Shown here: positions 58,781-61,722 of the stretch, piece by piece
Layout of the letters: every line of letters begins with the position of its first letter
Position numbering within the stretch: the first letter of the stretch is position 1
Assembly (NCBI RefSeq): GCF_900603025.1
Contig: NZ_LR026975.1
Location: 3,410,001 to 3,474,000 of the forward strand
Origin: Mycolicibacterium hassiacum DSM 44199
GTDB taxonomy: Bacteria > Actinomycetota > Actinomycetes > Mycobacteriales > Mycobacteriaceae
Direction: 5' to 3'
DNA: 64,000 nucleotides
The notes under the pieces: model-generated
What the model was told of the DNA's origin: nothing
Seen by the model: only the letters and a program-made list of their open reading frames with translations
Database searches by the model: none
Program-made: the position numbers and the translations under genes

Positions 58781-58860
58781 CGAGCAGTCCTTGCCGCAGC
58801 GTTCATGTTTCGCACTATATGAGACCTCGGCTACAGCAACTTCGCGATAATGTGCCCGTC

Positions 58861-60743
58861 GTGGGCGCATATCGAGAGTTGTTCGACGTCAGCATCACCG
58901 ACCCGACGGGTTTCTGGGGTCAGGCGGCGAAGACGGTCAGCTGGACCCGCACCCCGCAACGCATCCTCGACGACAGCAACCCGCCGTTCTACCGCTGGTT
59001 TCCCGACGGCGAACTGAACACCTGCGCCAACGCCTTGGATCGCCACGTCGCGTCCGGGCGCGCCGACCAGCCGGCCCTGATCTACGACTCGCCGGTCACC
59101 GGCACCAAGCGCATCTACACCTACCGCGAACTGCTCGACCAGACCGCCCGATTCGCCGGAGCGCTGCGCGGGCTCGGCGTCGACAGAGGCGACCGGGTGG
59201 TGATCTACATGCCGATGGTCCCCGAGGCGGTGATCGCCATGCTCGCCTGCGCCCGCCTCGGCGCCGTCCACTCGGTGGTGTTCGGCGGGTTCGCCGCCCA
59301 CGAGCTCGCCACCCGCATCGACGACGCCCGGCCCAGCGTGATCGTCTCCGCGTCCTGCGGCATCGAACCGACCCGCCTGATCGAGTACAAGCCGATGCTC
59401 GACGCGGCGCTGGAGATGGCCGAACACCCGGCGGCGACCTGCGTGATCCTGCAGCGCGACCAGCACCGCTGCCAGCTGATCGCCGGGCGCGACCACGACT
59501 GGCAGGAGTTGATGGCCACCGCCGAGCCGGTCGACCCGGTACCGGTCAAGGCCACCGACCCGCTGTATGTGCTCTACACCTCCGGCACCACCGGCAAACC
59601 CAAGGGCATCGTCCGCGACAACGGCGGCCACGCGGTGGCGCTGCTGTGGACCATGCGCCACCACTACGACATCGCCCCCGGCGAGGTGTTCTGGGCCGCC
59701 TCCGACGTCGGCTGGGTGGTCGACCACTCCTACATCGTCTACGGGCCGCTGCTGCTGGGCGCCACCACCGTGCTCTACGAGGGCAAACCGGTGGGCACCC
59801 CGGACCCTGGGGCGTTCTGGCGGGTGGTGTCCGAGCACAAGGTCAAGGCGCTGTTCACCGCGCCGACCGCGATCCGCGCCATTCGCAAGGAGGACCCCGA
59901 GGGCGAACACCTGGCCCGCTACGACCTGTCGTCGTTGAAGTACCTGTTCCAGGCCGGTGAGCGGCTCGACCCGGACACCTACCAGTGGGCCTCGGCGAAG
60001 CTGGGCATCCCGGTGGTCGACCACTGGTGGCAGACCGAGACCGGTTGGGCGATCGCCGGCAACCCGATGGGTGTCGAACCGCACCCGATCAAACCGGGCT
60101 CGGCGACGGTGCCGATGCCCGGCTACGACCTGAAGGTGCTGCGGCCCGACGCCACCCCCTGCGCGGCCAACGAGGAGGGGTCCATCTGCCTGCGGCTGCC
60201 GCTGCCGCCCGGCACGCTGCCGACGCTGTGGGGCGACGACGACCGGTACGTGGCGTCGTACCTGTCGGCGTTCCCCGGCTACTACCTCACCGGCGACGGC
60301 GGCTATGTCGACGAGGACGGCTACCTGTTCGTCATGGGCCGCACCGACGACGTCATCAACGTCGCCGGTCACCGGTTGTCCACCGGTGCCATCGAAGCGG
60401 TGCTGGCGGAGCATCCGGCGGTCGCCGAATGCGCGGTGATCGGCGTCGCCGATGAGCTCCGCGGCCAGGTGCCACGCGGCTTCGTGGTGCTCAAGGCCGG
60501 AGCGAACCCCGACGGGTTGCCGACGAGCTGGTCCGCGCGGTGCGCGAGAACATCGGCGCGATCGCGTGTTTGAGGTCCGTCGATGTGGTGCCCGCGCTGC
60601 CCAAGACCCGCTCCGGCAAGATCCTGCGCAAGACCATGCGTGGTCTCGCCGACGGCCGCGACGAGCCGGTGCCGTCGACGATCGAGGATCCGTCGGTGCT
60701 GGAGAAGATCAAACCGATCCTCGCCAAGGGCTCGCCGAGCTAA
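58861..60743 (+). pseudogene. prpE: Propionyl-CoA synthetase (PrpE-like), 3' frameshift
   Basis: ACS-family acyl-CoA synthetase, nearest to PrpE (propionate + CoA + ATP). GTG 58861 (GAYRELFDVSITDPTGFW) fits the PrpE N-terminus; the frame stays open upstream to ATG 58819. ATP site YTSGTTGKPKGI; VDHWWQTETGW; MGRTDDVINVAGHRLSTG. After GANPDG the register breaks at 60514-60516, and ENIGAIACLRSVDVVPALP and TRSGKILRKTM, with the catalytic lysine, are one frame over to TAA 60743. One missing G in that run repairs it to about 627 residues. As given, the enzyme would lack the adenylation lysine. Confidence 0.85.
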
Positions 60744-60829
60744 AGCTGCCCGTACACCGCCGTACCGGCCTAATGTTGGGGGAGCGCTTCCGATGCGCAA
60801 CCGTTAGGACAGCAAAGGAGTGAACGGCG

Positions 60830-60937
60830 ATGCGTACCCCGTCGACAAGGGCAGGTGCCGGCTGCACGTGTAGGTGCAACGCGTGCGACCAGGGCCATCA
60901 CTGCGGAAACCGGCCCAACTGCAACGTCCGAAAGTAG
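60830..60937 (+). CDS. 35-residue cysteine-rich metallothionein-like protein
   Basis: ATG 60830 to TAG 60937, with AAAGGAG 9 nt upstream. Six of 35 residues are Cys, in a C-x-C-x-C-x2-C-x5-C-x5-C array (CTCRCNACDQGHHC, then NRPNC), plus two His. This is a soft-metal-binding pattern, as in metallothioneins; length and sequence differ from MymT. The basic N- and C-termini (MRTPSTRAG, NVRK) could also fit a zinc knuckle. A strong hairpin 20 nt after the stop ends the unit. Routine gene calling would miss it. Confidence 0.7.
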   Translation: MRTPSTRAGAGCTCRCNACDQGHHCGNRPNCNVRK

Positions 60938-60956
60938 TCCGTTCCGATTCGCGCGC

Positions 60957-60983
60957 CGGCCGGGCGAACCGATCGCCCGGCCG
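60957..60983 (+). terminator. Hairpin terminator after the Cys-rich ORF
   Basis: Perfect 10-bp stem CGGCCGGGCG / CGCCCGGCCG with a 7-nt loop AACCGAT, beginning 20 nt after the stop. No U-tract. Confidence 0.7.
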
Positions 60984-61241
60984 CGGGGGGTTCGCGCGCA
61001 CCACATGGTCGTCTCGCGCCGCGGCGCCCACCGCGCCGGCGATTCCTCGGCGTCGACACCGGGCGGCACGCCCCGCCCCGGTTCTGTCGTTAACCGTAAC
61101 CGCCTGCTCCGCAGTGACTTTCGACATTCTCTTCCACCGCCGGTGATGACGGCTGCGGCTGCGCCGACACGACCCGCATAGCCCTCGGTGAGGGCCAGAT
61201 CACATCCGCCACGCCTTCCCGCGGGTCGGCAGCCCTGTGCC

Positions 61242-61261
61242 ACAGGGACTTTGGTCCCTTC
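61242..61261. promoter_or_regulatory. DosR/DevR box upstream of fdxA
   Basis: ACAGGGACTTTGGTCCCTTC contains GGGAC-TTTG-GTCCC, the core palindrome bound by the hypoxia/NO response regulator DosR. Its centre is 65 nt before ATG 61317. A -10 TACACT ends 6 nt before that ATG, so transcription probably starts at the codon. Confidence 0.75.
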
Positions 61262-61316
61262 AAGTACGTGCCTTCGACCCGAGAGCCACCCGCCGGCGCG
61301 TCCATACACTTCCGGC

Positions 61317-61664
61317 ATGACCTACGTGATCACCAGCGCATGCGTCGACGTGATGCACAAGTCATGCGTCCCGGAATGCCCGGTGGACTGCATCTACGAA
61401 GGCCTCCGCACCATGTACATCAACCCGGACGAATGCGTCGACTGCGGGGCGTGCAGACTCGCGTGCGAAGAGAACGCGATCTTCTACGAAACCGACCTGC
61501 CCGAGGAAGAGAAGCGCCACCTCGACGACAACCGGGCCTTCTTCACCGAGGTGCTGCCGGGACGTGACGAACCGCTGGGCAGCCCGGGCGGCGCGTCGAA
61601 GATCGGCCCGCTGGGGGTCGACACCCCGATGATCGCCGCGATGCCGCCGCGAACAGGTGGATGA
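61317..61664 (+). CDS. fdxA: Ferredoxin FdxA (7Fe-8S)
   Basis: 115-residue two-cluster ferredoxin. N-terminal Cys set in SACVDVMHKSCVPECPVDC (a 3Fe-4S-type arrangement) and the second CVDCGACRLAC for 4Fe-4S. Long C-terminal extension with FFTEVLPGRDEPLGSPGGA, matching M. tuberculosis FdxA (Rv2007c), a member of the DosR dormancy regulon. Role: low-potential electron carrier. ATG 61317 is leaderless by the -10 spacing. Confidence 0.95.
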   Translation: MTYVITSACVDVMHKSCVPECPVDCIYEGLRTMYINPDECVDCGACRLACEENAIFYETDLPEEEKRHLDDNRAFFTEVLPGRDEPLGSPGGASKIGPLGVDTPMIAAMPPRTGG

Positions 61665-61702: not shown

Positions 61703-61722
61703 CAAGGGACTTAGGCCCCTTT
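61703..61722. promoter_or_regulatory. Second DosR-type box
   Basis: Contains GGGAC-TTAG-GCCCC, differing from a perfect DosR palindrome by one base. The centre lies 43 nt upstream of the leaderless ORF at 61756, a usual activator distance. Confidence 0.65.

What the first reader, a model, noticed from the sequence alone, without database searches (positions are those of the whole stretch)
60830..60983. Cysteine-rich mini-protein resembling a metallothionein
Thirty-five codons, six Cys in a C-x-C-x-C-x2-C-x5-C-x5-C array with two His, a strong ribosome site and its own terminator. Too small for gene callers and different from MymT. It may bind Cu(I), Zn or Cd, and lies just upstream of a DosR-regulated ferredoxin gene.
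Basis: partly seen in the sequence, partly recalled or inferred. Interest (0 to 1): 0.75.

Follow-up and report, generated by a model that had tools for sequence, protein, structure and literature searches.

The report
Conserved mycobacterial metallothionein-like mini-protein
A 35-residue, cysteine-rich protein that gene annotation has mostly missed is a real, conserved mycobacterial gene; it most likely holds metal ions inside the cell, and in one group of species it sits beside a nickel/cobalt sensor and an exporter.

Summary
The ORF at 60830-60937 is real. It encodes MRTPSTRAGAGCTCRCNACDQGHHCGNRPNCNVRK, with a Shine-Dalgarno sequence, a -10-like box and a GC hairpin behind it. Profile searches find relatives in 150 of 396 Mycobacterium genomes; hits outside the genus are weak or partial. 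No Pfam or NCBIfam family matches, and no PDB chain above chance level. Six Cys and one His are kept in divergent variants with rare exceptions; codons evolve under purifying selection.

The ferredoxin neighbour is not conserved (0 of 80 named loci). The usual upstream neighbour is a propionate/acyl-CoA ligase gene. In 18 of 81 loci the gene directly follows an NmtR-type Ni/Co sensor gene with a divergent heavy-metal P-type ATPase.

A promoter/operator-like element lies upstream in 45 of 80 loci at one fixed spacing; where found by genome search it occurs once, at this gene. The window copy matches it only at chance level.

Best reading: a cytosolic metal-thiolate buffer, functionally a metallothionein, in a family not matching known ones. 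Metal binding is inferred; Zn/Ni/Co-type metal is favoured over Cu, but open.

The parts
60830..60937 (+). 35-codon ORF, Cys-rich mini-protein (subfamily A)
   Evidence: homologues; purifying selection
60863..60925 (+). conserved core CTCRCNACDQGHHCGNRPNC (residues 12-31) plus the following Asn; six Cys and the His next to the fifth Cys are kept in divergent variants with rare exceptions
   Evidence: alignments; residue counts (motif-selected set); variants
60814..60820 (+). Shine-Dalgarno AAAGGAG, 9 nt before ATG
   Evidence: SD-like motifs precede the start in 80 of 81 loci by the rule
60771..60776 (+). TAATGT, putative -10 box; by eye it stands where relatives have TATNGT/TATATT, but both element words match here only at chance level (4 mismatches each)
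   Evidence: consensus inference, no transcription start data
60958..60982 (+). GC hairpin, 10-bp stem with 5-nt loop and no T-run; possible terminator or mRNA 3' end
   Evidence: canonical scan negative; downstream 70 nt with z < -1.5 in 49 of 80 loci (mononucleotide shuffles)
58825..60743 (+). upstream propionate/acyl-CoA ligase gene, the most frequent upstream neighbour of the family; in this window it is read in two frames

Best explanation
The ORF is a real gene for a cytosolic mini-protein of a family found, as far as searched, in Mycobacterium. SHOWN: a conserved 20-24-residue core with six Cys and one or two His behind a variable N-terminal tail, under protein-level selection. Also shown: in many species a promoter-proximal element of fixed geometry that genome searches found only at this gene, and in one set of species (18 of 81 loci) a position directly behind an NmtR-type Ni/Co sensor gene with a divergent heavy-metal exporter gene. 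INFERRED: the Cys and the conserved His fold round one to three soft or borderline metal ions (Zn(II), Ni(II), Co(II), Cd(II), possibly Cu(I)) in a thiolate cluster, so the protein buffers or sequesters metal, as metallothioneins do, until efflux pumps clear it. INFERRED: transcription starts just behind the TATNGT box about 40-100 nt upstream of the start codon and is gated by an unidentified repressor at CATATGTTGAT. In the window's own organism that element is not recognisable above chance, so expression there may be regulated differently or be constitutive.
For: Homologues in 75 of 198 (E <= 0.01; the weakest are doubtful), 150 of 396 (E <= 0.01) and 58 of 148 (E <= 0.001) Mycobacterium genomes. 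80 named loci kept of 83 confirmed stretches, nearly all titled Mycobacterium or Mycolicibacterium. pN/pS 0.35 on the core codons not fixed by the motif (66 distinct sequences of the loci) and 0.39 on the same codons in 26 distinct sequences of the 30 best-scoring loci, 30 of 30 of which carry the full core. Variants found by profile keep six Cys and the His before the fifth Cys while the other His varies (17 of 56 proteins read, exception P0048). NmtR neighbour: PDB 2LKP E 3e-44 for the L086 copy; N-terminal MGHG and the D-x-H / H-x2-H positions in 18 of 18. P-type ATPase: TIGR01525 and TIGR01512 above cut-off for the L079 copy, SPC in 18 of 18 and HEGST in 17 of 18. Next gene weakly ZIP-like in 14 of 81 (two copies tested: PF02535 E 0.0012 and 0.018, below its cut-off). 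Element: CATATGTTGAT with at most 2 mismatches in 46 of 80 loci against 0 of 80 for the reversed word; 16-nt register in 45 of 45 that hold both words; one site in each of 4 of 13 genomes (exact 12-mer) and 8 of 10 genomes (29-mer, up to 3 mismatches), each at this gene by coordinates.
Against: No metal-binding, translation or expression data. AlphaFold gives no confident fold (mean pLDDT 52.5, pTM 0.16), which fits metal-dependent folding but equally any small disordered peptide. The NmtR neighbourhood is confined to a set of related species and looks like a sensor-exporter cassette inserted between the CoA-ligase gene and the mini-gene (ligase still upstream in 17 of 18), so it may be one event. 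The window's genome has no close NmtR (best 46% over 83 residues). In 63 of 81 loci no NmtR gene is adjacent. 34 of 80 loci, the window among them, lack the CATATGTTGAT word at 2 mismatches or fewer, and the loci are related species, so counts are not independent. One homologue (P0048) has lost a core Cys. 17% Cys is at the low end for metallothioneins (general knowledge). The ZIP and NmtR labels rest on one or two tested copies plus clustering.
Confidence: 0.55

Rival explanations
1. Structural zinc mini-protein: the core binds one or two Zn ions to fold into a small knuckle that docks on another protein (regulator, adaptor), with no buffering role.
For: Conserved non-ligand residues (Gly before the His pair and Asn two after the fifth Cys) in all 62 distinct proteins, a motif-selected set; bacterial metallothioneins themselves contain zinc-finger folds (PMC10612145, passages).
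Against: Those Gly/Asn are broken in some variants; CxCxC runs are more typical of thiolate clusters than of single zinc sites (general knowledge); no constant partner gene, the commonest neighbours being the CoA ligase and DUF4383; the AlphaFold model is not confident.
Confidence: 0.2
2. Metal-delivery partner of a metal transporter: it hands Ni/Co (or Zn) to the neighbouring P-type ATPase, as small accessory proteins encoded beside mycobacterial P-ATPases do (recalled).
For: Adjacent to an NmtR gene and a divergent heavy-metal P-type ATPase gene in 18 of 81 loci.
Against: 63 of 81 loci, including the window, have no such sensor gene directly upstream; the gene probably predates the cassette.
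Confidence: 0.1
3. Thiol/redox buffer or zinc-redox switch responding to NO, oxidants or thiol stress, with the Cys as the reactive groups.
For: Cys-rich; dormancy-type boxes lie downstream in the window.
Against: Those boxes stand before the downstream genes, which are not conserved neighbours; none lies between the ligase gene and this ORF; neighbouring His and fixed spacing fit metal binding better.
Confidence: 0.08
4. Cys-responsive leader peptide: ribosome stalling at the Cys codons attenuates a downstream gene.
For: Polycysteine leader ORFs that attenuate operons are reported in mycobacteria (the terms co-occur in papers listed; mechanism recalled).
Against: Downstream genes differ and in 20 of 81 loci the next gene is on the opposite strand; conservation includes His, Gly and Asn and reaches the C-terminus; pN/pS below 0.4 on codons outside the motif; the window ORF has an SD sequence, not a leaderless start.
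Confidence: 0.04
5. Chance ORF with no product.
For: Very short; one search lists 63 mechanical ORFs of at least 25 aa in this 5.5-kb stretch, and the window holds two other equally Cys-rich ORFs.
Against: Homologues and codon evolution exclude it; only this ORF has the CxCxCxxC motif.
Confidence: 0.01

Closest known systems
MymT, copper metallothionein of M. tuberculosis (RicR regulon)
   Same: Small Cys-rich mycobacterial protein; function as a metal sink proposed here.
   Different: No NCBIfam or Pfam hit for the mini-protein; different Cys spacing (MymT sequence recalled, not fetched); no copper gene recognised among the neighbour clusters examined. RicR control of mymT is from PMC10961391 (passages).
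SmtA/BmtA prokaryotic metallothioneins (PF02069)
   Same: Cys plus His ligands and CxC motifs; SmtA lies by an SmtB-type sensor gene (recalled), as this gene lies by an NmtR gene in 18 of 81 loci.
   Different: Shorter (family members mostly 31-42 aa; PF02069 has 51 positions); PF02069 does not hit the gene in its own genome (best 14.1 bits elsewhere); no PDB metallothionein matched by the profile at E <= 10.
NmtR-NmtA nickel/cobalt sensor and exporter
   Same: The neighbouring regulator and ATPase in 18 loci are of this kind; NmtR controlling a P-type ATPase is from PMC7055735 (passages).
   Different: The mini-gene has its own promoter-like element, which does not resemble by eye the ATACAT...ATGTAT dyad between the ATPase and nmtR genes.
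Small accessory proteins encoded beside mycobacterial P-ATPases (PacL type; recalled)
   Same: Tiny metal-binding protein encoded next to a metal P-ATPase in some species.
   Different: PacL (recalled) is membrane-anchored with a D/H-rich motif; this one is Cys-rich and too short and polar for a membrane segment, and in most loci no NmtR/ATPase pair is adjacent.

Membership tests
Metallothionein (functional class) | Small (<10 kDa), Cys-rich, with CxC motifs | tested here: met
   35 aa, 6 Cys (17%), CxCxC
Metallothionein (functional class) | Cys conserved through evolution | tested here: met
   profile-found variants keep six Cys, one exception P0048 among 17 of 56 proteins read; the motif-selected loci partly force this
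Metallothionein (functional class) | Metal-thiolate cluster with bound metal | not testable with these tools
   needs ICP-MS, UV or mass spectrometry
Metallothionein (functional class) | Expression controlled by metal | tested here: inconclusive
   NmtR gene adjacent in 18 of 81 loci; dedicated element of unknown regulator
PF02069 Metallothio_Pro (SmtA) | Match to the family profile | tested here: not met
   no hit
MymT | Sequence relatedness to MymT | not tested
   MymT was not fetched; no family hit of any kind, but whether those libraries hold a MymT model was not checked; difference in motif recalled
Cys-attenuator leader ORF | Constant co-directional downstream target gene | tested here: not met
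   next gene varies and is on the opposite strand in 20 of 81 loci

The most novel reading that the evidence does not exclude
A new family of mycobacterial metallothioneins (6 Cys + 1-2 His, about 35 aa) with a private one-gene operator, CTATNGTGA-N6-(T/C)ATATGTTGAT, read by a still unknown metal sensor. In species around M. peregrinum, M. senegalense and M. wolinskyi and around M. canariasense it has been drawn into an NmtR/P-type-ATPase Ni/Co defence locus, which would make it, to my knowledge, the first Ni/Co-linked metallothionein-like protein of the genus.
Probability: 0.3. Interest if true: 0.68.

Novelty: new variant of a known kind. Interest (0 to 1): 0.55.

Why it matters
From recall, mycobacteria have one described metallothionein, the copper protein MymT. 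A second family without detectable relation to known ones, present in over a third of the Mycobacterium genomes sampled (150 of 396) and mostly unnamed or misnamed in databases ('hypothetical protein', 'calcium-binding protein', 'EGF-like domain-containing protein'), would fill a gap in Zn/Ni/Co handling and gives a short, cheaply synthesised peptide to test. The gene-specific promoter element makes the question of its sensor directly testable.

Tried and rejected
FdxA/DosR link: rejected, since FdxA was next to the gene only in the window and one other locus of those examined. Chance ORF: rejected. RNA element in place of a protein: no Rfam match at E <= 1 in 60700-61350, and codon evolution is protein-like. 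Mobile or phage origin: no match in plasmids, phages or viral contigs (45 pattern stretches, none confirmed). Regulon search: the element gave only this gene, so it names no regulator. The pN/pS of 0.13 is biased low because the sequences were selected by the motif; one search redoes it on codons that the motif leaves free. Hits outside Mycobacterium (1 of 397 genomes, 10 of 394, 1 of 298) were looked at for 9 of those 12 and not accepted as family members. Print: sequence words of the core were found in 0 papers; the searches listed nothing that I recognised as this protein. For those only listings with starts of abstracts were seen; passages were seen of three papers (PMC10961391, PMC7055735, PMC10612145). 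The library holds open-licence papers only.

Rows dropped: L068 left out of the start/element counts (no SD found by the rule), so n is 80. In the neighbour tally clusters 21, 30, 44 and 60 (and 42 on the upstream side) were left out as likely antisense ORFs, and neighbours farther than 700 nt upstream or 900 nt downstream were not counted; 74 of 81 loci have a counted upstream neighbour and 77 of 81 a downstream one. The second pN/pS figure used the 30 best-scoring loci, not all 75 genomes with a match.

Full report
What is there. The + strand at 60830-60937 reads ATG to TAG, 35 codons: MRTPSTRAGAGCTCRCNACDQGHHCGNRPNCNVRK. A Shine-Dalgarno AAAGGAG (60814-60820) and a TAATGT box (60771-60776) precede it; a perfect 10-bp GC hairpin (60958-60982) follows, without a T-run. 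In 40 simulated order-1 windows, ORFs of 20-60 aa this rich in Cys occurred 0.05 times per window on average, none with CxCxCxxC; the real window has three, two of them on the - strand, and only this one has the motif. So Cys-richness alone proves little and the case rests on conservation.

It is a gene. A plain similarity search found it in 75 of 198 Mycobacterium genomes at E <= 0.01, the weakest of these doubtful, and a profile of two subfamilies in 150 of 396. A scan of named genomes confirmed 83 stretches and kept 80, nearly all titled Mycobacterium or Mycolicibacterium. Subfamily A ends GHHCGNxPNC(N/Y)x(R/K)(R/K); subfamily B ends GHHCHNIGSGC(K/R)VK(P/L). More divergent variants in the genus lack the first His but keep six Cys and the His next to the fifth Cys; of 56 proteins found I read 17, and one, P0048, has lost a Cys. 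Outside the genus there are only weak or partial hits: 1 of 397 genomes, 10 of 394, 1 of 298. No Pfam or NCBIfam family matches; the profile's only PDB match at E <= 10 is an unrelated enzyme at E 1.7. Names that sources give to relatives include 'hypothetical protein', 'calcium-binding protein' and 'EGF-like domain-containing protein'.

Selection. Over the 16-codon core the third codon position varies most (heterozygosity 0.10, 0.12, 0.43). Because the loci were picked by motif, I repeated the count on the seven core codons that the motif leaves free: pN/pS 0.35 (66 distinct sequences), and 0.39 for 26 distinct sequences among the 30 best-scoring loci, which were found without any required residue and all carry the full core. 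The product is a protein under purifying selection.

Neighbourhood. FdxA lies next to the gene in the window and in one other locus (2 of 30 with 1.5-kb flanks) and in none of 80 named loci with flanks up to 6 kb. The most frequent upstream gene is a propionate/acyl-CoA ligase: directly upstream in 33 of 81, midpoint within 4 kb in 50 of 81. DUF4383 is the next gene in 34 of 81 and a Ppx/GppA gene on the opposite strand in 20 of 81. In 18 of 81 an ArsR-family gene lies directly upstream. The copy in L086 matches M. tuberculosis NmtR (2LKP, E 3e-44), and the N-terminal MGHG and the D-x-H and H-x2-H positions are kept in 18 of 18; the ligand set is from PMC7055735 (passages). Beyond it lies a divergent heavy-metal P-type ATPase (TIGR01525 and TIGR01512 above cut-off for the L079 copy) with SPC in 18 of 18 and HEGST in 17 of 18. 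The reading of these motifs as a P1B-4, CtpJ-like Co/Ni pump is recalled. In 14 of 81 the next gene is a membrane protein with a sub-threshold ZIP match (two copies tested; tally). In 17 of 18 the CoA-ligase gene is still found beyond the ATPase gene (the eighteenth locus ends just beyond it), so the sensor-exporter cassette was probably inserted between ligase and mini-gene, perhaps once.

Promoter element. In 46 of 80 loci an 11-mer CATATGTTGAT stands upstream with at most 2 mismatches; the reversed word reaches that in 0 of 80. In 45 loci ACTATTGTGA is also present within 2 mismatches, and the two are always in the same 16-nt register. The loci are related species, so these are not independent counts. 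The exact 12-mer occurred in 4 of 13 genomes and a 29-mer (up to 3 mismatches) in 8 of 10 genomes, one site each; by coordinates each lies at the mini-gene. It looks like a promoter with an operator at the start point, dedicated to this gene; the regulator is unknown. The window copy matches both words only at chance level (4 mismatches each, as the reversed controls do), and so do several relatives with the NCHKCDQGHHC-type core. Some subfamily-B loci instead read TGTGAN6TCACA, which resembles a CRP site (recalled consensus).

How it probably works. Six thiolates and one or two imidazoles in 20 residues, with CxCxC spacing, are best suited to a small metal-thiolate cluster. A cytosolic peptide of this kind would buffer or sequester Zn/Ni/Co/Cd-type metal until exporters act. 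Shown: gene reality, conservation, promoter element, metal neighbourhood in one set of species. Inferred: metal binding, identity of the metal, cytosolic buffering, repression by a metal sensor. AlphaFold gives no confident fold (mean pLDDT 52.5), so structure does not help. The window's genome lacks a close NmtR (best 46%), so Ni/Co control by NmtR cannot be the general mechanism.

Compared with what is known. It works like a metallothionein, but it is not a PF02069 member, matches no PDB metallothionein, and gets no family hit in NCBIfam or Pfam; MymT itself was not fetched or compared. It is unlikely to be a Cys-attenuator leader, since downstream genes vary in identity and strand. I rate it a new variant of a known kind.

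Noticed in passing
58825-60743: The propionate/acyl-CoA ligase gene is read in two frames: the main frame carries the family match to about residue 560 and the C-terminal part lies in ORF 60540-60743 in another frame. A sequencing error or a true pseudogene; not mended.
   Followed up: partly
61245-61258 and 61706-61719: Two GGGACTTxxGxCCC boxes before FdxA (61317) and a pyridoxamine-oxidase-like gene (61861), 0 and 1 mismatch; they look like DosR boxes (recalled).
   Followed up: partly
L097, L098, L100, L103, L106 (upstream of the mini-gene): TGTGAN6TCACA right behind the -10 box in these subfamily-B loci, a possible CRP site.
   Followed up: no
L056, L072, L079-L088 and others (ATPase-nmtR intergenic region): An ATACAT...ATGTAT-like dyad between the divergent P-type ATPase and nmtR genes (by eye), a candidate NmtR operator.
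   Followed up: no
L170, L171, L172, L175: More divergent paralogue-like variants, some with longer N-terminal tails; some genomes (for example G436, G145) hold one together with the main form.
   Followed up: partly
L151, L153, L154, L157: A short ORF containing SCSCACNACD recurs in several small actinobacterial genomes; it matches only the first half of the core and may be unrelated.
   Followed up: no
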